In this document: positions 125 through 63,377 of the stretch, piece by piece
Numbering within the stretch: the stretch's first letter is position 1
Layout of the letters: the number at the start of each line of letters is the position of its first letter
Source: Patiria pectinifera
Taxonomy: Eukaryota; Echinodermata; Asteroidea; Valvatida; Asterinidae
NCBI GenBank assembly: GCA_029964075.1
Contig: CM057142.1
Span: forward strand, 5,161,770 to 5,225,769
Reading direction: 5' to 3'
DNA: 64,000 nucleotides
Notes under the pieces: model-generated
Told to the model about the DNA's origin: nothing
Databases searched by the model: none
Seen by the model: only the letters and a program-made list of their open reading frames with translations
Made by a program: the position numbers and the translations under genes

Positions 125-2477
125 CTATTCAAAGAATAGATCAGACTTTTCCAATGAGATATAGAATAGTGCTAATAGCCCTTAACTACGACTTTTTTCC
201 TCTCCCCGTTACCTTGGCAATTCATAATTTGACATTCAAGCATCATTAAGAATCATTTCAAATGATTTTTATTTGCTGGGTAGGTAGTTTGCTATTCATA
301 ATCACTCTTGGAGGACGACTGAATTAAGGCGTGCAGCACTGTGGACCAATGGTTATGGTGTTCGACTCACGTGCCATGGAACGGGGGTTCGACTCCTGAC
401 GGGGAACATGGTGCTTCTGTTCTTGGGCAAGACACTTTACTATGATTGTCTCTCTCCACCCAGGAGTATAAATGGGTACCTGTGACGGTAGAGACCAGAA
501 TGCGCTGATCTCGAGCTGCTGCAGAAACTGGTCTCATGGCCTGATGAACAGGGGTAATAATTGTGAAGCGCTTTGAGACCTTTGGTTCAAAGCGCTACAT
601 GTATACATGTATATAAGCACCATATTATTATTATCAAAATTATGAAATCATAGATGTCTGATGTAACAGGAACAGGAAAAAAAGTGGACTCCAAATTTAT
701 AGCATGACCCTCATATAAGCCTTAATAAAACACTGATGGAAGCCATGAGAATAAGAATAGCAAGGTCTTTTCACACAGTCGTCTTGGCTTCCTGTGTTCA
801 AGCAACACGGATCCAACCCGAGTGAACTTGGGTCAGATGAGAAAAGTGTCAGCAGTGCATACTGTTAAACATTTACGCCAGTTTTTACGAGGATCAACCA
901 TACTTTTTATTATTTTTATACCCGGGCAGAGCTGCTCAACCTTGGTCCCGACTCAGGATGAATTTGACCTGTACAGAGCACTGGACCCATGTAGAAGCCG
1001 AGTTGGAGTCTTGCTAGTGTGAAAGGTTTTCCAAAAATCTCTGTGTTGGACCCAGGGTCAGCACTGAGATTTTTCGATAGTGTGAAAGGCCTTTTCATAC
1101 CTCTGTGAGGGTTTGACCAGGTCGTTTGGCAGGCAGGAGGTACACTTCTACTTGTCCACTGGAGGTGCCCACGGCAATCTGATGGTCAATGCTCGTCAGC
1201 AACTTGACGCAGGTTATGCGGCAACTTCGGTCCTGTTTGAGACGAAATATTGACACACCGAATCATTATAAACGAGAATGTTCCTCAACAAGTGCATTGG
1301 GAACTTAAACAGGTGAAAATCAAGCAATATTTTTCAAATATTTACTCAACTCGGTGAGTAATATAAAGCAGAACCCAAACCCAAAGAAATATATTTCATA
1401 TTTAAAAAAAAAATTGTAGCACCAAAAATAATTGACCTATTGCCATTTGCGAGTTAGCCACGCCCCTTAGTCAACCCTATGGAGTTTTGTCTGTTAAATT
1501 TTGTTTCTCAGACTCTACGCATTCCGCGTCCATTTTTATATTATGTATTTGGACAATATTTCACAAGCTGCGTTGACGCAATTCTGATGCAATTCTACCG
1601 TGATAGGTTAATTATGACTGGTAAGCCAATTTAGTAAACTACTTTTACATAAAAAAAAATCATTTCAATTGCTCCATCCGTCTTTTAAAAGACAGGCCTT
1701 CAAAAGGACTTTGTTGAATATTTTTAACTTTTAAACTGAGGTTTTATCGCTGGTGATGTTTGAAGACAATTGTAACGACAATTCTTGAAATCGCAAGTTT
1801 GGACGAAACAGATTTTAGGGTCATTTTGTTGAAATGGTGATATCATTTGAACGGATGGAGCGATTGAAGTAATTTGTTTTCATCTAAATGTAGTTTGTTC
1901 AATTGACTTACCAGTCAAAATTATTGTTGGTACTACATGTACATATTTTTTATTAATATGACATACATTTCTTTGGGTTTTACTTTTTTTGACTGACCCT
2001 GTTCATGTTAGGTCTCAACTTAACTCAAAAAAATCTTACCTCACATTTCAACTTGACAATCGTGTTCTCTTGGCGATCATACACAAAGACCATGGAGAAG
2101 TTGGCACCCAAGACAATCAGGTCCTTGTTGACGTCCAAGCAGGTGAACTCGACCGTGATGGCCGGCAGGGCCCGCGAGGCCCGCTGCGCTTTGCGCGGCA
2201 GCTGCTGCAGGAGAAAATCCAAGGAGGCAAACTCGCACAGTTCCGGCAAGACGTTGAGCCTGACATCGGGACTGATTTCAGGGGACGTAGGAGCAGTATT
2301 ACTTGCATCGGTCTCTGCTGGCACCGTTTTCTGGTGGTCGATTTCGGCAGCCTCGCCCTTCTCTGCTGTTTCTTCTAGTTTTGCAACTGAATCATCATTT
2401 GTTGGTCTCTCCCCAAACTGAGTTTGGTCATATTCTGTCTGTATTTGCTCCCGATGGCTTTCATCTTTGGTATCCAT
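1..2477 (-). CDS. TECPR2: TECPR2 homologue, 5' part (exons 1-3, gene continues past left edge)
   Basis: N-terminal part of a tectonin beta-propeller repeat-containing protein 2 homologue, a cytosolic WD-repeat/tectonin protein that in vertebrates binds ATG8-family proteins and supports autophagy and ER-exit trafficking. Three coding exons (2040-2477, 1101-1232, 1-124) join in phase 0 with GT-AG junctions and encode 187 residues plus one base. The spliced product follows the human TECPR2 N-terminus from memory: an E-F-x-x-L-x-x-L-L motif, then the first WD-like blades with VKLL, AVGTSSGQVEVY, and NGMKLFTGDSVGNIVYCD in the third exon. HPS5 is a distant relative with similar N-terminal blades but fits less well. 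The tectonin repeats and LIR motif would lie outside the window. An unusual acidic extension of about 78 residues precedes the conserved start. The gene is minus strand, in tandem with SPTLC2/3 upstream. Confidence 0.87.
170..712. mobile_element. MITE copy A, interrupted by a SINE
   Basis: Degenerate palindromic element homologous to the one at 30839-31363: both share ATTCATAATCACTCTTG-like and AACAGGAACAGG blocks and end in CCAAATTTATAG(A/C)ATGACC. This copy carries the SINE at about 330-632 and lacks the nested MITE present in the other copy. It lies in the TECPR2 intron between exons 3 and 2. Confidence 0.7.
330..632 (+). mobile_element. tRNA-derived SINE
   Basis: Pol III-type head with a perfect B box GGTTCGACTCC at 386-396 and an A-box-like TGGACCAATGGTTATGG upstream, a body with the phrase TCTTGGGCAAGACACTTTACT, and an ATTATTATTATCA tail. 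The same family occurs at 22535-22822 and 18655-18770 on the other strand. Confidence 0.75.
1101..1232 (-). CDS. TECPR2: TECPR2 coding exon 2
   Basis: 44 codons, phase 0 at both ends, acceptor ACAG|GAC and donor GAG|GTATGA. Encodes a WD-like blade with ITCVKLL and AVGTSSGQVEVYLL, aligned to the human segment ITVVKLL...AAGTASGRVAVF. Confidence 0.86.
1432..1611. mobile_element. 180-bp MITE, TTGACCTAT ends
   Basis: Begins TTGACCTAT and ends ATAGGTTAA; carries GAGTTAGCCACGCCCCTTAG near one end. Homologous copies lie at 47221-47396 and 59095-59274 in the opposite orientation. In the TECPR2 intron 1. Confidence 0.75.
1615..1917. mobile_element. Palindromic MITE, TGACTGGTAAG ends
   Basis: Starts TGACTGGTAAGCCAATTTAG and ends in the inverted form CTTACCAGTCA; inner arms repeat TTGCTCCATCCGT / GGATGGAGCGATTG. 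Directly abuts the preceding MITE. Confidence 0.7.
2040..2477 (-). CDS. TECPR2: TECPR2 coding exon 1
   Basis: 146 codons ending in phase 0 at a GAG|GTAAGA donor. The ATG at 2477 has a good context (AACATGG) and an in-frame TGA four codons upstream, so it is the likely start if there is no upstream coding exon. Residues 1-78 are Glu/Asp/Thr/Ser-rich and look disordered. From LPELCEF at 78-83 onward the protein matches the first TECPR2 blade, ending VVFVYDR-like and VKLKCE. Confidence 0.85.
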
Positions 2478-2932
2478 GTTAACGCATCAGTCGGTAGTTT
2501 CATCGAACAAAGAGATCTGCATTTTCAAAAAAAATACAGTTTAAAGACCTCCAACAATAATCACAGGAGCCTTATAACTATTAAAGAAGTTGTTTACAAA
2601 TTTAACATTGAATTCCAATAAAACCAACACAGCTAAACTGTACTGTACATGACACTCTCCTGGAGAAAAATGAAACAGACAATACACACATGCTCATTCA
2701 AATCAGCTTTGATTTTATGAAAAATATAAGCATGGCCATGTATTTGAAAATGTTCACCTACGTGTAGTGTACCAGGTTATATTAATACAATGTACATGTA
2801 CATGTACATGTACTTGTGAAAAGTGTACATGCACACACGTACCTGTATGTTTATAAAATATGCAAAGTGTCAAAATGTGCAGATCTACATGTACGTAATT
2901 GCACATGACGTACATGTAGGAACAGACATTAA

Positions 2933-9050: not shown

Positions 9051-10078
9051 GGTTTATTTATTGATAGGCCACAGCGCATTCAAAACGTGGGGATGGGGGG
9101 GGGAAGGTGGACATCATCTGACACTAGATGGCGCTGTCAGATTCATACTACCCTCGTTTTAGGGGTGCATATGTTCCCCAATACCTATTTCCCCCAACCC
9201 TAACCCTAACCATCTAAAACCCCAACCCCAACCCTAAGGATTTTGGCGAACATAGGTTTTGATGAACATCGGGTAGACCCGTTATTTAATTGGCTATTTT
9301 GGGCCAGGAAGGGGCGTGGGGGGGGGGGGTGTAAAGCCTCCCTGGCTGCCCCTTGGTTGCACTTCAACTGTCCCCCTTTTCTCCCTGGTGGGGGCCAATT
9401 CAAATCTCCTGCACCCACCACCATTATAATAATGTTAATAATAATAATAATATCCTGGTCTTTCAAAAACTTCTGTGGAAGAGATTATCGATGTTAATAC
9501 TTCCTATAGTCATACCATGGGGTTGTAAAAAGGACGCCTGTAGATGAACTCGCAGCTAATGAAAGCAAACCGCTTCAAAATACAACCATACTCAAAAGTG
9601 CACTTTATTTACTACACCAATGTAGGAATTACATGTACATGTACTGCACTCTGCACAATTAACACCTCAAACCATAAAACTAATCTACTAATGAATACAA
9701 TTCTGAAAATGATATGCATTGTAACACGTTTAAGCAACTGAATGTATAGGTGTCCTAAATAACCGTATAAATTATACAAATTGCTTTAAATCTTATATAT
9801 CAACTAAGACAAGGTGGGAAGGAAAACTGGTTTTAGGAAAAATGGGAAACGTGATCAGGATATTACAGCAAATGTTATATATCTACATAAGTTCTTCACT
9901 TTGACTCACGCATGCAGTTTTTATTAGCAATGAGACATCTAAATCTCTGTCCAGAAGCTATCAAAGGGCCCATGCAAAATAGTGTTGATTAATCAGATTA
10001 GGTTTTGCCCTTCACCGACGTACAACACTGTATACTCAGTGTGTTACCTCCCGAGTGAAAGTCGGAAAAAAATCACTC

Positions 10079-10155
10079 GGGTGGGACTCGAACCCACGAC
10101 CTCCTGCTTTCTAGTGCAGATGTCTTACCACTCAACCACCGAGCTAACGGGATCA
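10079..10155 (-). mobile_element. tRNA-like sequence, probably a SINE head
   Basis: Minus strand reads as a tRNA-like fold: GTTAGCTCGGTGGTTGAGTGG (A box), TCTGC/GCAGG anticodon stem, and a perfect B box GGTTCGAGTCC (10094-10084). The anticodon loop has eight bases and the acceptor arms pair poorly, so it is not called a functional tRNA. Neighbouring 10014-10070 (ACACTGTATACTCAGTGTG) recurs near 13400 and 30400. Confidence 0.6.
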
Positions 10156-22200: not shown

Positions 22201-25200
22201 AGAATCTTCTTCCAGGGCTTGTGCGTTCTTGGTTGACCCGATGAAATCGCATCTCTCAATACCCTCTCTAGATCAACTGTGTCTGAAATACAAAAAAAGG
22301 ACAGATTCCATTTTATCTTGTTATACCGTGGTATTAGATTGTGAGATTTCAATGATTGAGAGTTGTTTATGTGACGTACTTCAGGAGCTTATGTGTGATT
22401 AGTTAATTAGACTCTCCGGGTACATCAATAATAAATTGTAATGCGAGGGATGCGACGGACAGGGCCAAGTGGAGGAGAGCCATAGGGAGAAAGCAGGCCA
22501 ACCCAGAACAGACTGGACAGCGGCCTCAAAACCGACGATGATGATGATGATGATGCTTATATGGCGCTTTCCATCGTATCAACAATCTCAAAGCGCTTTA
22601 CAATTATTCCCCCCATTCATCAGGCCACGAGACCACGCGGCAGCCGATATCTGCACACATTCGGTCCTCTACCCTCACAGGTACCCATTTATATTCCTGG
22701 GTGGAGAGAGGCAATTGTAGTTAAGTGTCTTGCCCAAGGACACAAGCACCATGATCCTGGCAGGGTTTGAACCGACGCACCATCGTACATGAGTCAAACA
22801 CTGTAACCACTGGACCATGGCAATCTACATCAACTCATGTCCTCTTTCTCATAGACCTCTGAATATTTTTGTCCTCACTGCATTGTTCAACACAGCTCGA
22901 ATTAGACCCTACGCACAAGGCACATTGTAGGTAATGCATCCTAGGGTGTGCACGTGTTAACGCGGACCTGCGCGCCTGTAATGCAGACGCGAATACCAAC
23001 AACCGAAGTATTGGCCTTCAGAATTTGAAATGTGTACAAGGGTGTAAAAACTTCCTGACTTTTTATTAAATCCAAAAGAAACAAAAGCCGTATCCTCTCT
23101 GAGTGATCCCCGTTTGCCATTTCCCAGGTTTGCATCGTGACTTTGGGCGTGATCCCTGGCTGCATGGCATACTGGTTTATGGCTTCTGACTAACGCCCCT
23201 CGAACAATGACATTGACAAATTGGGGAACCGCCAACATAGGGCCGGATAGCTCATTTGGTAGAGCACCCGAACAGTTATCCGGAGGTCGCAGATTCAAGC
23301 CCTGCTCCAGTCAATTTCTTTGTTCAACTTGTCAATTGTTACAATTCACCTAGTCAGTTTCCAAACATTCATCAAAATATAACATAACAGTCTTCAAAAT
23401 TAATACATTGGTATTTAACAAAATGACTGTCTTTTGTGGTATACTCCATGGGTTCAAAAATTATACTTTCTAGGGGGTAACTGGCACCATCAGCTGCACC
23501 TCAGGTGCCATGGAATATATCACAACAGACAAATGATTTCTTTCGAACCATGGAGCTAGCAATCCACACCCGGCATCACTGTGAGGTCAAAGAGGCTTCC
23601 AGAACCGACAAAAGCATTGTGCTAGCTAGTAATTCAGAATAATCGTCACGCAGGGGTTGCTTTGTACAATAGCCGGCTCAGCGCTCCTTCTACCCCTGGT
23701 ACCGGTACCGGTACCTGGGGATTTGTGAGTTTACAATATATACAAATATACACGTACCGGTACGTCTATTACTATCAAATAGCCTCATAACTTTTCGTGT
23801 CAACACAAAAGTAATATTGGTCTGCCAAATGGAGGTCCATGCGTGACTTCAGAATGATGAATTTTTATGAATGAGACATACCGTTGTGTTCAAAGACCTT
23901 GACTGATGCCCCAGACAGCCGGATACCCAGCACCAATGAAGAGTGGTTCAGCTTGTCGCTTATGACCAGACAACCCTGTCGGGAGAGATCAGACACAGTA
24001 CAATGTAGTAACATTAACTGCTACGAAGCAGACAACAAAGACTTGTACGGCACGTATAATTGTCTAGTCTGCAGGGCGCTCATTGGCACACTCTAAAATG
24101 TCCCACTCTTGCGATCCAAAAAAAAAGTGCAATCAGTTCCATATTTAGTGGAGTATTTCATTCTCTGTAGGTATACTGGAACTACCTTATTTTGTTTTAC
24201 ATGTATACTGCTACCAAAAAAAATGTTGCTCAGGAAATTTACTATGGAAGGACATGAGCTAGGAACTGGGCCCGATTTCACGGCGCTGCTAAGCACACGA
24301 TTTTCTGCTTACAGAGCCTCTGTCTATTTCATGGAGACTGTAAGCATAAGCACAGCAAAAGGCACGCTTACTTCAGAGGAAAAGTTTGCTTAAACTAGTG
24401 ACGTAACAATAGAAATCTCCATGCACATGCGTCTGTTAGCACATCCACGCCGTGATGAAATAGTGCTTAAGGTCAGCAAATTTTTCTGCTATGTTAAGTA
24501 CAACTTTTCTGCCAACTGTAAAGCAGCCCCGTGAAATTTGGCCTTGGTTGCAATCGTTGAGAATTGGAAGGCATCTTGGGTATTTAAACTGCTTTTTCAA
24601 GCTTGGACACTTTGATGCTGAGTATGTCTGTGTGGCTAGCGATTGAGAATGTCTCCTCTGTTTTACCGACTATTCAAAGGCACAATTTCATACTGTCTAA
24701 TTCAAACTTACCTTCAGACATTGAAATTCTAATTGAGACTTTCTAAGTATAAGCTTACGATAGGAATGATAACAAAATAGGTATGCAGACAATGAAAAAA
24801 AATGTGTGATTTGTTTGGACAAGGAAAGTGAATCCTATGCTGGGCTCAATTTCATATCGCTGCTTAGCAGTAAGCAGAACAATTTTGCTAACTAAAGCAG
24901 ACGATTTTGTTAACCTTATGGAATGGTTGCACGGGCATGGAGATTTCTCTTGTTATATCACTCATTTAAGCACCTTTTTCCATTTGTGTGCTTACTGCTT
25001 ACAGTCTCCATGAAATAGATGGAGGCTCTGTTAGCAGAAAATTGTGCTTAGCATCGCCAAGCACCTCAGCATATAAACGTTCTGAAGCAATGCTAACTGG
25101 GACTTTTTAAAACAATTTTGTTTTTTTAATTTCTCATTCAGTGTATTCGCTCTTTTCACACTTCCGCCATGGGCATGCAGTGCCTCGATCCGGCAACTTT

Positions 25201-54786: not shown

Positions 54787-54874
54787 CATAGGTTGATGCA
54801 TGTAATAGTGCTATTAGCAAAACTTATCAGCCATCACACATACAAGTAAATTTTAGTTCACATGCATACATGTA

Positions 54875-55516
54875 CAGGGTGTTTAAAAAAAAAAGGAAAC
54901 CGAGCTTATTTTGTTGATTTCTCGGGTATGACTTATTATTTAGAAAAATGGTAGCCACCATCTGTTACATAACCATGTCTTCTTTTTCTTGACACCACGA
55001 ACTCTATTTTACCGTCGTGGATGACTGAGCACCAGGTAATGTAACTGACATGCCACAAATGGCCTTGTACCACATGCACCATAAGACCAATCGACAGTTA
55101 TCAGGAGACGTTATCAGGAATGCGTTCACAGCAATGAGAACCAGGGCAGAGATCTGCATTGAAAGGAATGGGGGGCATGTTGAAGGACAGTGGGGTTAAC
55201 GGGGACAGTGAGGTTAACGGGACAGTGATAAACCTTGATATGTTTTAGCAATTGAATAAATGACTTTGATAATGTACGTCCTGGATTTTGTTATTTTCAA
55301 CATGCTGAAAACTGTGCATGACAATGTGGTACAAGGCCATTCAGTTACATCACTTTGGTGCTCAGTCATTCGTGACGGTAAAATGGAGTTCGTGGTGTCA
55401 AGAAAAAGAAGACATGGTTAATATAACAGATGGTGGTTACCATTTTCCTAACTAATTAGTCATACCCGAGAAATCAACAAAATAAGCTTGGTTTCCTTTT
55501 TTTTTTAAACACCCTG
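54875..55516. mobile_element. 642-bp element with ~215-bp terminal inverted repeats and TA target site
   Basis: CAGGGTGTTTAAAAAAAAAA and GGAAACC at the left, GGTTTCC...TTTAAACACCCTG at the right, flanked on each side by TA. The inverted arms extend through ACTGAGCACCA and ACAAATGGCCTTGTACCACA. TA duplication and end type suggest a Tc1/mariner-like non-autonomous element; no transposase frame inside. Confidence 0.85.
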
Positions 55517-55775
55517 TATGGCAATGATGTATTATGATGTGAATAATATATCTCTGGGAAACTTCGGGTCTATCTAATTTGTTTACGTTATCCAAGAAAC
55601 CTCACTTGACGGCAAGTTGTGTATGACTACTGTCTGTTATTCCTTAATTCCTAAGAATGTTTTCAGTAGGAAACTCTATATGCCAGAATTGCTTTTCTGA
55701 TTGTGGAAATTGTTCTGTGTAGCTTATTTTTTTTTTCTTCAAAATAACAACATATATTCCGGTATTTATCTTTAA

Positions 55776-56446: not shown

Positions 56447-56712
56447 CGGACCAAACCGAATGTAAGCAGCAGAAACACGGCCGTCCCAATGCTAGCAGTG
56501 AAGAGGAACTCAAGAACTGACAGACGGAAGCGAGTAACGATAGTGGTGAAGCCGCCCTTTACTCTGCCGAAGAAGCAACAGAGGTATACTCGTTCCGGGA
56601 AAGAAGTGAGACGATTTGACCAGGATGAATGTAGGTCACACAGAGCCGAGGCAACAGGCTCCAAGATGGGTAGTTTGGAAGAGAAAAGAGAAGTACACAG
56701 GGTACATGAGAG
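56447..56712 (+). CDS. bHLH-HMG gene, exon carrying first half of basic region
   Basis: 88 codons plus two bases. Acceptor CTCAATTTAG|CGG preceded by a pyrimidine-rich tract; donor GAGAG|GTGGGT. An internal ATG at 56489 is in frame, so it could also be the translation start. Very basic (NSRTDRRKRVTIVVK, KKQQRYTRSGKEVRR) and ending KREVHRVHE; the split codon AG+A supplies the Arg of the E-R pair when joined to the next exon. A large palindromic element starts 42 bp after the donor. Confidence 0.6.
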
Positions 56713-59700
56713 GTGGGTGCCCAGCAAATCAGACTTATACGGAATCCTATTATGGCCAGGTACCTCTTTCTCTTTCAATGCGGTGCGTTTCTCTTTCACG
56801 GTGGTGCATTTCTCTGTCGTGGTAGCTGGCCTCTCTTTCAGAATGTGTGTCCCTCTCTTTCAAGGGGGCAAGTCCATTTTTCAAAGGGGTGTATTTCTCT
56901 CCAAGTGTGATTAACGCGTGGCCGTGACATAATAACTGGTAGCTGCGACATAATAACTTGCGGCTGCAACATATTTATCTTGTGGCCGCAACTTATTTAT
57001 CTCGCTGCCGTGACTTTTTAAACTCGCGACCGTGACTTCACGGCCGCGAGTTAAAAAGTCGCGGCTGCGTGTTAATAATTCGAGGCCACAAGATAAATAA
57101 GTCGCAGCTGCGAGTTAATAAGTTGCGGCTGCGAGATAAGTAAGTTGCGGCTGCAAGTTATTACGTCACGGCTACCAATTATTATGTCGTGGCTACAAGT
57201 TAATCACACTTGGAGAGAAAGACACCCCTGTGAAAAATGGATGTGCCCCCTTAAAAGAGAGGGCCACACGTTCTGAAAGAGAGGCTAGCTACCATGAAAG
57301 AGAAATGCACCGCAGTGAAAGAGAAACGCACCACTGTGAAAGAGAAAAGTGCCTGGCCCTAGCACGCTTTCTGCAGTTTTGTATTCCCACTGCACATGCG
57401 CACAACAGAACATTTTTTTTAAACTCAGAAGATATTTTTTATTTTATAACTGTCAAGGGCTTTAACCTGCTAAAAGGATAGAAACAATGAACAGCTGTCG
57501 ACAAAAAGTTACTGTCAACAAAAAGTGGCACCTGACAATAAAACGCCGCAACTTTATGATGAAGTAACAACACAGTCGTGTGTGTACAGAGTTTATTTTG
57601 TTTTTCGAATGTTCAAAGCTGCAACTAATTATTCTTAAATTCAATTGATATTCAAATATTCAGGACATTCCTAATCTCCTTGACTCTTGCTAGACGATGA
57701 TGTATAAGATTTGAAAAATACATGTTCAGGTTTATTTGCTGAGCTCTTAAAGCCATAGTCCATCATTTGCAGCTATCCAAAAAGTGACTGACGTAATTTG
57801 TGATGGAAAACATACTTTGTTGAAAGATAGTAAGGGGACTTTATGGCAAGCTGTCATTTTGGAGAAATCAACAGGAAAAAGGCATTTCCAACGGTGCTTC
57901 ATAAGAAGCACCGTAGGAAATTTAAATTAGTTGTTCGTTTTGTTATTTGGCGAAGCACACGCAAGCATTGGCACGACGCACACGCGTGCGCAGTTGTTAT
58001 AATTCATCGGATCAGTGCGCAACATCGCGTAGCTGCAATCGGCTCAGTGATGAACGTGTATCGGACGCTGAATTCAGGCCCAATTCAAACATGCAATTCA
58101 GCAACTTTTGATTTGAAATCAAGATCCTAGAATGGTGTTTTTCTCGTAATATACAGCTGAAGCTGAGCTGAAACTTCATCAGGTTAGTTGTTCAGTACCC
58201 TTCTTTAGATTTTGAGCACTTTCGTTGCTTCAAACAAACAACATGCACAAATTACAAATGATGGACTATACCTTTAAAGTACCCCCAGAAATGTCTGATT
58301 AGAAATATCTGTGATGCTGGAATTGCTATCTGTTTCTTTGGTTTAGACAGCGCCATCGGAGCCTGAATGAAGCCATGAAGGAACTGGTCAAGATTCTACC
58401 CCCCGGCAATCCTTTCAGAAGTGTGACAAAGGTATGTCAACTTTCATGTGCAAAAACACAATTCCAACAAGAAATTTGAATAAAAATAACTTTTTCAAAA
58501 GTGAACAAAGAAATTGATTGGAGCAGGGTTTGAACCTGCATGGGACCTCTGGAGTGCCGTTCCGGTGCTCTACCAACTGAGCTATCCAGCCCTATGTTGG
58601 CAGGTCCCTAGTTTGTTAGTGTCCTTGTTCAAGGGGCAATAGAAGTATCGTCTCCGAGTGATCCTGATTATTTTGGGGGGGGGGGGGTTGGAGCCTTGTT
58701 GCTAGCATCGTGACTTTGGGTGTGATCTCTGGGCACATGGCATATACGGGTTTATGGCTTCTGACTAGCACCCCTTAAACCCTTAAGGACATTGACAAAT
58801 TGGGGAACCGCCAACATGGGGCTGGATTGCTCAGCTGGCGGAGCACTGACAATCTGGAGGTCGCAGCTTCAAGCCAACATTTTAGGAATGTATATGCGCA
58901 TGCTAACAGCTTCCCTCGCATCCGCATCACGGGGAGTAAAATTCAGGCTTGAAAACTTGATCACACTGGAAGTTCATTAAACTTCTTGAACTGCTTTATC
59001 CTGGCTAGTTACTCCAGATGCATTAGGGTTTGACTATTACGTTCGGCATGAGCAACTGCCGTACTGAAGATGAGCTATTGCTGCACTCATTCAATTGACC
59101 TATCACGGAAGAATCGCGGTTGAATTGCGTTAACGCAGCTTGTGAAATTTTGTCCAATTACATGATGATATACAAATGGACACTGAATGCGCAACCTCTG
59201 AGACAAAACTTAGCGTAAAAATTCCATAGTGTTGTCTAAGGGGCGTGGCCAACTCGCAAACGGCGATAGGTCAATTAAGTTCGGCGCGGCAGTGGCATGG
59301 CGTCTAGAATGGGCCTAATTTTGTTCTAGCCAAAGCCTTTGTTCCTTACTTATGCAGTTATCAGTAGTCTTACAAAATTTGATCTAGTTCAGTTTTTTTT
59401 TAACCTTGTGATCACTTCTTAGATCTTTGCATCTTCTTTCTGTACAGTACAATGTTCTCAGGACGGCAAACGACTACATTGATTTTCTACAACATAAAAT
59501 AACTCAACTGTGTCTGGAACATAGCATTGAACAAAATACCCAGGACGGTAGGATCAGTTTCAACATACCCTTAAACACTGTGGTCGGTAGGTACTCGTAT
59601 TACAAATCATACATCATTTATGAGCCAAACAGGCCTCATGCATTGGTTCTTGGTCACGCTTTTTGCACTTCTTTTGCTCCTTAACCACTTCGCGCTGGGA

Positions 59701-62700
59701 TTATTTTTGCCGAAGTTGGCAACATTTTCCAGCCAACTTCTTATGTACAACCAAACGCCACAAATACTGATTCGCAAGAGTCATTTGAACAGTATTTGTT
59801 CGATTTTTCTTGCTGAAACCTCGCATGTTTCAATACTCCGAGTTGTGCACTGGAGTGTAAATTGTACAACAATAGGCCGTGCACAACGGCAAATTCAAGA
59901 TCAACACATGGTCTGCCTTCACAGACTTCATGGACTTAGTGTGTGTGTGTGTGTACAAAAGGCACAAGGTATATTAGCGTGTTCAGACGTCACCCAGAGG
60001 CGAGTCGTAGCATTCGTGACGTCTTAACCCTTCAGCTGCATTATAGTACGTGTTATCATGTCCTCCGACCCAAACTGGTTAAAGGGTCAATAAAATGAAT
60101 TTTACACTGGAGCATAGCAAATATCCATTCCTCTGAATGTATGAAAAACTAAGAGTACATCCCTTTTTGGTAAAAAATCTTTTTCAAGTGCACTTATTTA
60201 AACCTTTAAAACGTTTCATGCATTTCCCAACAACTGAGGGTGCTGTTGATATGATGTCACTTTAGGCACCTACTCTTCGGATTAATTAGGCTTTTTCTCT
60301 TCAAGTTTGTGAACCCAAACTTGTGCGTATTGAACACATTTGTGTGTAAAGTTTTCTCAATGTCTTACTGTCGAACAACAACGAATCACTACAAGCAGAC
60401 AAGTAACCACAGCAAGCCCACAAAATTTTGGTGACTTTTTATGCTGAAGAAGCTATGTGATACTGAAGTTTCTGCCTTGAATGACATCACGGTTTTGCTC
60501 TTGAATGTGGAAATTTGTATTAGCATAAAAACCAAAGCGGTGCCAAAAACGCTCTTAAAATGGCAATATGAAGATTAAAAATAAGTTAAGTGGGACACAA
60601 GGGTACATTTCAAGGATTGCATTAAAACAAATTCCATTACATATAGGCCCCTTAATGTGATTCATGTCCAGAGTATTTCAAAGTGGATCTGTTTTCACGA
60701 CTCCTTTTAGGCGGAGAACGACTGGAAATTCCTGCTACCACTCCGGTCAGCCCCAAAATGCTGCAGACTGTCCACAAGGCAGCCAAAGACCTGTCCACAG
60801 ATCTGATAGCTAGGAGAGGACCAACTGAATCTGACGGTAGGACTCCCCCAAGGAGGTTCTCTCGATCCAGACTCACCAAGAAGTCTCCTCAGGCGACGGC
60901 GAAGACCAGCAGTACCGTGACTCTTAGCACAAACTCTGGAGCTGTGTATAAGGGGATACCGCAGATGGCTTTTGGTCAACCCTCCCGTCCTCCAGAAAGG
61001 CTGATGACTTGCACTACCCCGACGGACTCCGATGACAGTGAGTTGGTTGTTGATGAAGCCCCTCCTCAGCCAGCGAGACGGACAGGACCAACTCCAACAG
61101 ATCCTGGTCAAGGTGACTTGGTTGTGGACGAAGCTGCTCCTCTAATAGGATCAGATGCGTCAGCAGCAGTTGCCATTCAACCTACAGAGGTCCCAGAGCC
61201 AATGCAGGCAGGTGCTAATTGCTCAGATAAGCACAGAGATCCCAAGAAAAACAGCCGGCCGAGAAAGGTGGGATCGAGTCTCAGTTCTGCTTCCATTGAC
61301 GGGAAGGAACGAGTAAGGCTGTCGGATCATTACATTCACGCTGATGCCTCCCCTCGTGGGGAATATGCCCTCCTACCCGCGACACCGCAACCTCTCGAGG
61401 AGTGCCATCCAAGCGTTACTGTAGGTACTGCACCGATCCAATCCTGCACTTTACCGTACCAACTTCACTCGGAGCACTCTTACTCAGCCAAGTTCCTGCC
61501 GGCGTTCACTGCATGCGGCGTCTCCGATGACAACAAATCACTGAATATCCCAGTTGCCATTGCTTTTCCTAGTTCCCAGGAATCTTCCCAGGTACTGCCG
61601 TCTGCAGCCTCAGAACCTGAGATTGTGATCGCCAGCGAGAGCAAGGTCAGAAGCTCCACTGACGTCATCCCTTGCATCTTGAGCTCTTCTCTGTACCTAC
61701 AGCACCCAGTCTCGTTTCCTATCAACATGGTATCTTGTGAGTCTACTATTATTCCGACTACACATGCGCATCGTTCAGTGTCCAAAACAACCCGACCAGT
61801 TCCAACCACCGCGACTCCCTCGGCCTGCAAGAGCAGGACTCGTTACGTCCCCATCCAGCCCGCTACCGGCACCTCTAATATTGATGCAGTGGCTAACACA
61901 TTGCTGCACTTGTATGGACAGTCTTCTGTAGTGAAGGTTAGTGTGAATATATCTCCACTATTATTTACTGCTTGCCTATTCAGTAATAGTTTCTGCAATA
62001 GAAATGTCACATACTCGACCATCAGGGCCATGCTATTGAAGAAATGAAGAAATGGGAATAAGTTGATTACAAAGTAACTTAAATTTGCATTAAAAATTTG
62101 CATTTCACCGAACTTAGTTAGTCCACATTTTGTTTGCAATTGGTAACATACCCGTGAATGGGCATATAAGCCAGCTAGTCGGGTACCCTGACCTGACAAT
62201 TCCCTGATGTCTATAAATTGTCCCGTTTTGTCTGAAGCATAGGGTCAGGGAACAAGGACAGCATTTGAACAGGTCAGTGGAGCGATATAAAGCAAAAGCT
62301 CCAAATCCATCCATTTCTGAAAATTAGAAAACGCAAATGTTGTATATTTACTTTAAGCTTCATTTTTAGTATGTAACAAATAAGCTGCCAAATGCAGTTG
62401 AAAAACAAAAAGTCTTTTTCAATCAGTCTTAGGACCATTAACCAGGCTCCTATGCAAACATGCATGCTGAGGCATGCTAGTTACTTGGGTCAAAATCAGT
62501 CAAGTGACCCGTTGGTGTGTTAAAAGTATAGCAGGGGAATTGGAAGGAAACTTTGACTGTTTGTGACCTTTTAAACAGCAGAGGGTTAACGGTTTTTCAT
62601 TGTTACTTGCAGAGTTGTTGTAAGGTTCTCTTAGGTCAATCACACGTCATTTTTAACCCTAACAGAACTCAACCCATCAAACTCCAACAGCATGATTTGT

Positions 62701-63377
62701 TGGAATCTGTAGGGATGGGTACAGTACCCCTAAACTGACAGTCTTTTACATTGGGTTGGCACACCTCCAGAAACTAAGTCAGAAATATGTGTGTGCAGTT
62801 TCCCATATGGTGTTGGAATTTGCCAGGATGGGTATGGTTCGTAAATCATGCTAGGGAGTCAGTTAGGGTTAAAGTAAATATGAAATGTGACAGAGACACT
62901 CCTTGTTTTTCTTCATCCCTTGTGTCTGGTGACCTTACTTGCGATTGGACTTGTGACCTGCCTTGTAATTTGGAAAGTGTTTAAAAGTTGTGATTTCACT
63001 TCTGATTGTCTTGTGATGGACTTATACAATGCTGATTTATTCCGGCAAAGGCCACAAAATACAAGGCAAAAAGTTTAAGCTCCGTACAAAAGCCCGGAGT
63101 GCGTGAAATCCCAGTTTGGGCCGTCAGTTTTATTCACCAATTATTTTGGTGTCCAGAACAAGCAGCCCACAGTCACTGACCTCAGCGCCCAGAAGTTGGT
63201 GGTCGACCCACATTTTCTGAAGTTGGAGGACTCGGACAGCCCTATGGAGTTCGCGTGTGATAGTGATCAGCAGCACGCTGTTTTGACGCCAGCGGCGGGA
63301 TCAGGTTACTCAATGCGTCGCTCATGGATTAACGGGTTCCAGCTTTTCACCAAAGTGAACCATCCACACTTTAGAGA
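56447..63377 (+). CDS. bHLH + HMG-box transcription factor, MEIOSIN/BHMG1-like (5 exons, both ends open)
   Basis: Five exons (56447-56712, 58347-58431, 59448-59586, 60711-61936, 63157-63377) have GT-AG ends and mutually compatible phases, giving at least 645 aa with no stop. Order of domains: a basic N-terminal part; a bHLH at about residues 82-135 (basic region VHERQRHRSLN, helix 1 EAMKELVKIL, loop PPGNPFRSVTK, helix 2 LRTANDYIDFLQHKI); a 400-residue Ser/Thr/Pro-rich, probably disordered middle; then the first part of an HMG box (RRSWINGFQLFTKVNHPHFR) cut by an intron at the right edge. The basic region keeps the E-R-x-R pattern that contacts E-boxes. bHLH plus HMG in one chain is known to me only from MEIOSIN (BHMG1), the partner of STRA8 that turns on meiotic genes in vertebrates. 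Orthology is inferred from architecture, not alignment. The first and last exons are missing. Confidence 0.65.
56754..57358. mobile_element. 605-bp near-perfect palindrome of layered short repeats
   Basis: Ends GGCCAGGTACC... and ...GTGCCTGGCC. Outer arms are made of TCTCTTTCA / TGAAAGAGA words, inner arms of about 20-bp units such as GCGGCTGCGAGTTAATAAGT and its complements; the centre is near 57055 (ACTTCACGGCCGCGAG). It begins 42 bp after the bHLH-HMG donor at 56712. Confidence 0.85.
57748..58277. mobile_element. MITE with TTAAAGCCATAGTCCATCAT ends
   Basis: Left TTAAAGCCATAGTCCATCAT, right ATGATGGACTATACCTTTAA. A G+C-richer insert at 57870-58130 (AAGCACACGCAAGCATTGGC) interrupts an A/T-rich frame. 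Parts resemble 4570-4720 and 21765-21910. Ends 70 bp before the helix-1 exon. Confidence 0.7.
58347..58431 (+). CDS. bHLH-HMG gene, exon with helix 1 and loop
   Basis: One base plus 28 codons; acceptor GGTTTAG|A, donor AAG|GTATGT. Encodes QRHRSLNEAMKELVKILPPG and NPFRSVTK, a textbook bHLH first helix and loop. Using the first AG keeps frame with the preceding exon; a second AG four bases on would not. Confidence 0.75.
58522..58645 (-). mobile_element. tRNA-derived SINE, reverse
   Basis: Minus strand: GGCTGGATAGCTCAGTTGGT (good A box), then GCAGGTTCAAACCCTGC (B box). The acceptor stem is not closed and flanking SINE body sequence is present, so it is not called a tRNA gene. Confidence 0.6.
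58690..58880 (+). mobile_element. tRNA-derived SINE, forward
   Basis: Body CGTGACTTTGGGTGTGATCT and TGACAAATTGGGGAACCGCC followed by the head GGCTGGATTGCTCAGCTGGC and GCAGCTTCAAGCC. Head-to-head with the previous SINE; both in the intron between helix-1 and helix-2 exons. Confidence 0.6.
59095..59274. mobile_element. 180-bp MITE, TTGACCTAT...ATAGGTCAA
   Basis: Third copy of the 1432-1611 / 47221-47396 family with intact ends; lies 173 bp before the helix-2 exon. Confidence 0.85.
59448..59586 (+). CDS. bHLH-HMG gene, exon with helix 2
   Basis: 46 codons plus one base; acceptor TGTACAG|T, donor GTCG|GTAGGT. Encodes YNVLRTANDYIDFLQHKITQ, the second bHLH helix, then LCLEHSIEQNTQDG. An alternative donor at 59547/59548 (GACG|GTAGGA) gives the same phase and a 13-codon shorter exon. 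Confidence 0.72.
60082..60660 (-). repeat. Dispersed octamer-repeat family, reverse copy
   Basis: Reverse of 55776-56350: AACTGAGGGTGCTGTTGATA, GGAAATTTGTATTAGCATAA and AAGGATTGCATTAAAACAAA. The octamer is mutated to ATACAAAT. It ends about 50 bp before the large bHLH-HMG exon. Confidence 0.7.
60711..61936 (+). CDS. bHLH-HMG gene, large Ser/Thr/Pro-rich exon
   Basis: 1226 nt, two bases completing a Gly codon plus 408 codons; acceptor CTTTTAG|GC, donor AAG|GTTAGT. The open frame runs on into the intron to 62047. Composition is Ser/Thr/Pro/Ala-rich with basic patches (RRFSRSRLTKK, DPKKNSRPRK). It holds a duplicated acidic motif: SELVVDEAPP and GDLVVDEAAP about 30 residues apart, each preceded by a PTD sequence. 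No known domain seen; likely a disordered regulatory segment. An ATG at 60683 lies in the intron and is not the start. Confidence 0.72.
62100..62354. mobile_element. Truncated AGGGAA/TTCCCT-family MITE
   Basis: Only the right half is left: AGTCCACATTTTGTTTGCAA, the CCCTGACC...GGTCAGGGAAC stem-loop at 62189-62252, and GCAAATGTTGTATATTTACT. Confidence 0.6.
62657..62868. mobile_element. 212-bp TTAA-flanked MITE, intact CCCTAAC/GTTAGGG ends
   Basis: TTAA at 62653-62656 and 62869-62872, CCCTAACAGAACTCAACCCA start, CAGTTAGGG end. Body almost identical to 32124-32341. Confidence 0.9.
63157..63377 (+). CDS. bHLH-HMG gene, exon with start of HMG box
   Basis: 73 codons plus two bases; acceptor GGTGTCCAG|A, donor AGAGA|GTAAGT. 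An acidic stretch (LKLEDSDSPMEFACDSD) precedes RRSWINGFQLFTKVNHPHFR, which fits helix 1 of an HMG box (compare the family pattern R-P-M-N-A-F-x-L-F). The strong donor sits inside the box; without splicing the frame would stop two codons later. The rest of the box must lie beyond the window. Confidence 0.65.

What the first reader, a model, noticed from the sequence alone, without database searches (positions are those of the whole stretch)
56447..63377. Invertebrate gene with bHLH plus HMG box, candidate homologue of the meiosis initiator MEIOSIN
Seen: five exons with GT-AG ends whose phases all fit (2/1, 0/0, 1/2, 0/0) join into one open frame. The joined basic region reads VHERQRHRSLN even though an intron splits the Arg codon, which is hard to get by chance. 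The frame then continues through helix 1, loop and helix 2, a 400-residue disordered middle, and the opening of an HMG box. Known: MEIOSIN (BHMG1), partner of STRA8, is the animal protein I know with both domains, and it is described mainly in vertebrates. Inference: this may be an ancient, possibly undescribed, non-vertebrate meiotic-entry factor, which would push the bHLH-HMG design back to early deuterostomes.
Basis: partly seen in the sequence, partly recalled or inferred. Interest (0 to 1): 0.88.

Follow-up and report, generated by a model that had tools for sequence, protein, structure and literature searches.

The report
Sea-star-like bHLH–HMG gene resembling MEIOSIN
A marine invertebrate, probably a sea star, carries one intact gene that joins the same two DNA-binding modules as MEIOSIN, the mouse switch for starting meiosis, so that switch may be older than vertebrates, although its kinship and function are not yet shown.

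Summary
The five exons at 56447-63377 are GT-AG exons in one frame. The genome that holds the window could be searched, so I fetched the DNA to its right. Two more exons in phase, at 65097-65186 and 66268-66343 (counting on past the window end), finish the HMG box and end at TGA. The 700-codon frame carries a bHLH (PF00010, E 5e-9) and an HMG box (PF00505, E 3.3e-9 for the spliced domain). The seven exons were found at one locus only, and no second bHLH-HMG gene was seen. Twenty-two contigs of 15-55 Mb fit a sea star karyotype (n=22 in Patiria pectinifera); this is inference. The architecture is that of MEIOSIN. It is not STRA8: no match to the STRA8 bHLH model and no LxCxE motif. Orthology to vertebrate MEIOSIN could not be tested, for want of a verified MEIOSIN sequence. 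Expression and meiotic function were not testable; presence of a STRA8 partner is inconclusive. I rate it a new invertebrate member of a known kind.

The parts
56447..56712 (+). Exon 1 of the model (5' end open): N-terminal segment and the first part of the bHLH basic region; donor splits an Arg codon
   Evidence: AG/GT borders and frame; PF00010 covers residues 80-132 of the joined protein
58347..58431 (+). Exon 2: rest of the basic region and helix 1 of the bHLH
59448..59586 (+). Exon 3: helix 2 of the bHLH and the following segment
60711..61936 (+). Exon 4: long middle region, 1226 bases, inside a 463-codon open stretch
63157..63377 (+). Exon 5: end of the middle region and the first part of the HMG box (from about 63316). 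The gene goes on past the window: exon 6 at 65097-65186 and exon 7 at 66268-66343 with TGA, in window count (L002:5097-5186 and L002:6268-6343)
   Evidence: for the exons; PF00505 37.5 bits, E 3.3e-9

Best explanation
A single-locus, seven-exon transcription-factor gene of a sea-star-like invertebrate, of MEIOSIN type: an N-terminal bHLH that should dimerise and read an E-box-like site, a long middle region, and a C-terminal HMG box that adds DNA contact. The likeliest role is that of MEIOSIN: in germ cells about to enter meiosis it binds promoters of meiotic genes together with a bHLH partner and switches them on. Shown: the exons, both domains in one frame, one locus, the difference from STRA8. 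Inferred: DNA binding and dimerisation (from the domains), the sea-star host, orthology to MEIOSIN (from architecture alone), the meiotic role.
For: Seven in-phase exons and a stop; PF00010 E 5e-9; PF00505 E 3.3e-9, profile positions 6-64 of 69; each added exon raised the HMG score; all seven exons found at one locus, the six other matches at E<=1 touch the bHLH part only, best E 0.0045; MEIOSIN is described with bHLH and HMG domains (PMC9604137, passages read); no match to the STRA8 bHLH model at E<=10, no LxCxE, no BLASTP alignment to a recalled STRA8 fragment at E<=100.
Against: No sequence test against verified vertebrate MEIOSIN was possible. The HMG fragment that I recalled as MEIOSIN's scores no better against this box than TFAM (32.7 bits each; UBF1 31.6, BBX 28.9). 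No STRA8 partner was found (weak tests). DR5-type sites: 3 in the window, none within 45 kb of exon 1. The basic region looks E-box-like, while mouse STRA8 and Meiosin are reported at CNCCTCAG, which is not an E-box. No RNA evidence.
Confidence: 0.5

Rival explanations
1. Independent bHLH-HMG fusion: an invertebrate lineage joined a bHLH and an HMG box on its own, and the gene has a role unrelated to meiosis.
For: Both domains are divergent; the bHLH is on a long branch in no supported group, and the recalled MEIOSIN HMG fragment shows no special closeness.
Against: Same order of domains as described for MEIOSIN, one locus in the genome.
Confidence: 0.2
2. Pre-duplication form: the gene descends from a common ancestor of MEIOSIN and STRA8, both of which are described with bHLH and HMG-like domains, and works without a STRA8 partner.
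For: STRA8 also has a putative HMG box; the STRA8 bHLH model finds nothing over its cut-off in this genome (best 19.8 bits, cut-off 25, with a stop inside); one bHLH-HMG locus only.
Against: The genome search reads exon by exon and missed this gene's own split bHLH with PF00010, so the absence of STRA8 is not shown. That MEIOSIN and STRA8 are paralogues is not established here.
Confidence: 0.2
3. Mis-joined model: the bHLH exons (1-3) and the HMG exons (5-7) belong to two transcripts.
For: No RNA evidence; introns of 1.0-1.7 kb were joined from sequence alone.
Against: All six introns are in phase without a stop between the domains; exon 7 raised the HMG score from 32.1 to 37.5 bits; coding GC 0.52 against 0.41 in the introns.
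Confidence: 0.05

Closest known systems
MEIOSIN (BHMG1, meiosis initiator)
   Same: bHLH and HMG box in one protein (described for Meiosin in PMC9604137, passages read; both domains found here)
   Different: Not comparable in sequence here. The basic region aligns with that of Twist1 at HERQR/RERQR, which suggests an E-box reader (recalled rule), whereas mouse Meiosin shares with STRA8 the site CNCCTCAG, reported as no E-box
STRA8
   Same: Also described with a bHLH and a putative HMG box (PMC6392498, passages read)
   Different: No match to PF23175, no LxCxE, no BLASTP alignment of the bHLH with a recalled STRA8 fragment
Twist1 and other standard bHLH factors
   Same: Best PDB match of the bHLH is Twist1, E 4.2e-6; best match elsewhere in the genome is a Twist-like gene, E 0.0045
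   Different: No supported group in the tree with 28 bHLH domains of this genome, highest identity 40%; HMG box present
HMG-box proteins BBX, UBF1, TFAM
   Same: Best PDB matches of the HMG box: BBX E 3.2e-4 (exon 6 read on past its donor), UBF1 E 0.0011 and TFAM E 0.0024 (spliced box)
   Different: To my recollection none of these carries a bHLH

Membership tests
MEIOSIN | bHLH domain | tested here: met
   PF00010 E 5e-9 in the protein, 1.2e-10 in the domain
MEIOSIN | HMG box in the same frame, after the bHLH | tested here: met
   One frame; PF00505 E 3.3e-9
MEIOSIN | reciprocal best match or tree grouping with vertebrate MEIOSIN | not testable with these tools
   No collection with vertebrate proteins other than PDB chains; a recalled, unverified fragment did not discriminate
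MEIOSIN | expression in germ cells at meiotic entry | not testable with these tools
   No RNA data
MEIOSIN | STRA8 partner in the same species | tested here: inconclusive
   PF23175 nothing over cut-off, recalled STRA8 fragment nothing at E<=10; exon-wise searches miss split domains (one search missed this gene)
STRA8 | STRA8-type bHLH (PF23175) | tested here: not met
   No match at E<=10; the model does recognise a recalled human STRA8 fragment, E 2.9e-42
STRA8 | LxCxE motif (reported as potentially conserved in vertebrate STRA8) | tested here: not met
   Motif scan of the 700 residues, none printed
Twist or another standard bHLH family | grouping with that family in a bHLH tree | tested here: not met
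   28 of the 51 bHLH matches plus this domain: no supported set holds it; short and long-branched rows, so weak

The most novel reading that the evidence does not exclude
This is the pre-vertebrate meiotic-entry factor: a MEIOSIN-type protein that still reads E-box-like sites and acts without STRA8 or retinoic acid, STRA8 being a later vertebrate addition.
Probability: 0.15. Interest if true: 0.8.

Novelty: new member of a known kind. Interest (0 to 1): 0.5.

Why it matters
How germ cells decide to enter meiosis is known mainly from mammals, where STRA8 and MEIOSIN do it. An intact bHLH-HMG gene in a sea-star-like animal would date the design to before the vertebrates and give a workable gonad in which to ask whether the switch runs without STRA8 and retinoic acid. 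One search found 100 open-licence papers that hold 'Meiosin'; of the 40 titles listed none names an invertebrate Meiosin gene. Subscription papers and sequence databases were not searched, and automatic annotation of such genes there is likely.

Tried and rejected
HMG piece of exon 5 alone: no Pfam hit and only unrelated PDB matches at E 0.68 or more. NCBIfam: nothing. COX1 to fix the phylum by the mitochondrial code: not found in the assembly. STRA8 in the genome: one match under the cut-off with a stop inside, L037, read as chance. DR5-type sites: 3 in the window, 0.79 expected, 6 of 100 shuffles reach 3, none nearer than 45 kb to exon 1. Upstream first exon: of the candidates printed the longest has 63 codons and nothing else to speak for it, so it was not adopted. 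HMG-box census of the whole genome (PF00505): not completed. Fold prediction was not tried, since both domains exist only after splicing. Paper searches: nothing on an invertebrate Meiosin in the rows listed; passages of PMC11879061, PMC9178102, PMC13321354, PMC7096497 and PMC12289312 (zebrafish meiosin) were read; PMC11059408, one of two papers that hold 'meiosin' and 'invertebrate' together, was not opened. Ishiguro 2020 is not held.

Full report
Observation. Each is bounded by AG and GT and the joined frame is open. The joins make the bHLH: PF00010 E 5e-9 in the five-exon protein, 1.2e-10 in a 71-residue piece. The open stretch around exon 4, 463 codons, exceeds the longest in 200 third-order Markov sequences of 64 kb (266 codons), and coding GC is 0.52 against 0.41 in the introns.

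Extension. The window is G000:C14:5161770-5225769 of an assembly of 613.5 Mb in 1020 contigs. I fetched 36 kb past its right end and 10 kb on its left; the 4-kb overlap is identical to the window. About 1.7 kb after exon 5 an acceptor opens a frame that reads on into the HMG box. With the donor after CAG at 65186 and the acceptor TTGCAG before 66268, exon 7 gives the rest of helix 3, a basic tail and TGA. The HMG score goes from no hit with exon 5 alone to 32.1 bits with exon 6 read on past its donor and 37.5 bits with exons 6 and 7 spliced, profile positions 6-64 of 69. The frame has 700 codons before the stop; the start is open: Met 15, Met 73 or an upstream exon not seen. The spliced 700-residue protein as a whole was not scanned against Pfam; its two domains were, as was a 702-residue draft (PF00010 5.7e-9, PF00505 2.2e-6).

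Copies and kin in the genome. A search with the 700 residues gave 13 matches at E<=1: the seven exons at this locus and six matches elsewhere that touch only the bHLH part, the best E 0.0045 at a Twist-like gene. PF00010 gave 51 matches at E<=0.01 and did not list this gene, whose bHLH is split over three exons; such searches therefore miss split domains. A tree of this bHLH with 28 of those 51 (loci were held for the best 30; the partial L033 and L035 were dropped) put it on a long branch in no supported group, highest identity 40%. The PF00505 census of the genome did not complete.

Host. Contigs C1-C22 measure 15.3-54.9 Mb, together about 579 of 613.5 Mb by my sum; the five others looked at have 39 kb or less. 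Twenty-two chromosomes and this size fit an asteroid: n=22 is given for Patiria pectinifera, and the P. miniata v3.0 assembly has 608 Mb, though its own scaffolds did not show 22 clear chromosomes (PMC13317027, section 5 read). This is inference. COX1 was not found.

What it is. Mouse Meiosin is described as having bHLH and HMG domains (PMC9604137, passages read). STRA8 too is described with a bHLH and a putative HMG box (PMC6392498, passages read). Pfam has a STRA8 bHLH model, PF23175, which recognised a recalled human STRA8 fragment at 2.9e-42 but gave no match to this protein at E<=10. The protein has no LxCxE, a motif reported as potentially conserved in vertebrate STRA8 (PMC10600341, passages read). 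So MEIOSIN is the better of the two names, on architecture. A direct test was not possible: the fragment that I recalled as MEIOSIN's HMG box scored 32.7 bits against this one, the same as TFAM (32.7) and close to UBF1 (31.6) and BBX (28.9), so it says nothing either way.

Mechanism. From the domains: a nuclear factor that dimerises through the HLH. Its basic region aligns HERQR with RERQR of Twist1, which by recalled rules suits an E-box; mouse STRA8 and Meiosin are reported at CNCCTCAG, which is not an E-box. The HMG box would add DNA contact. A role in switching on meiotic genes is inference from the MEIOSIN likeness. Results that do not help: no STRA8 partner found (best 19.8 bits under a cut-off of 25, nothing; both weak tests), and no DR5-type site near the gene.

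Verdict. A real, complete (but for its 5' end), single-locus invertebrate bHLH-HMG gene; a plausible but unproven MEIOSIN orthologue.

Noticed in passing
window 56767-57347: Large inverted repeat in intron 1: arms of 231 bases, 87% complementary, 119 bases apart, built of 21-22-base tandem units.
   Followed up: partly
window 54873-55518: Element with inverted ends of 98 bases, 94% complementary, and a further inverted pair inside it, upstream of exon 1; looks like a small transposon.
   Followed up: no
window 58515-58591 (-), 10073-10145 (-), 23241-23313 (+): Three tRNA matches in Rfam, one of them in intron 2 of the gene; they may be tRNA genes or tRNA-derived repeats.
   Followed up: no
window 2028-2486 (-) and L006: Minus-strand exons at the left edge that I take for TECPR2-like (name recalled); the only Pfam match is a weak HPS5 beta-propeller, E 0.0089, under its cut-off.
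   Followed up: partly
L002:9710-9949 (window count 69710-69949), +: First exon of an FMN-dependent hydroxyacid oxidase-like gene (PF01070, E 8.1e-6, just over the cut-off), which bounds the bHLH-HMG gene on the right.
   Followed up: partly
L002:5737-5880 (window count 65737-65880), +: Short frame with a C2H2 zinc-finger-like stretch between exons 6 and 7 (E 4e-4, under the cut-off); probably part of a repeat.
   Followed up: no
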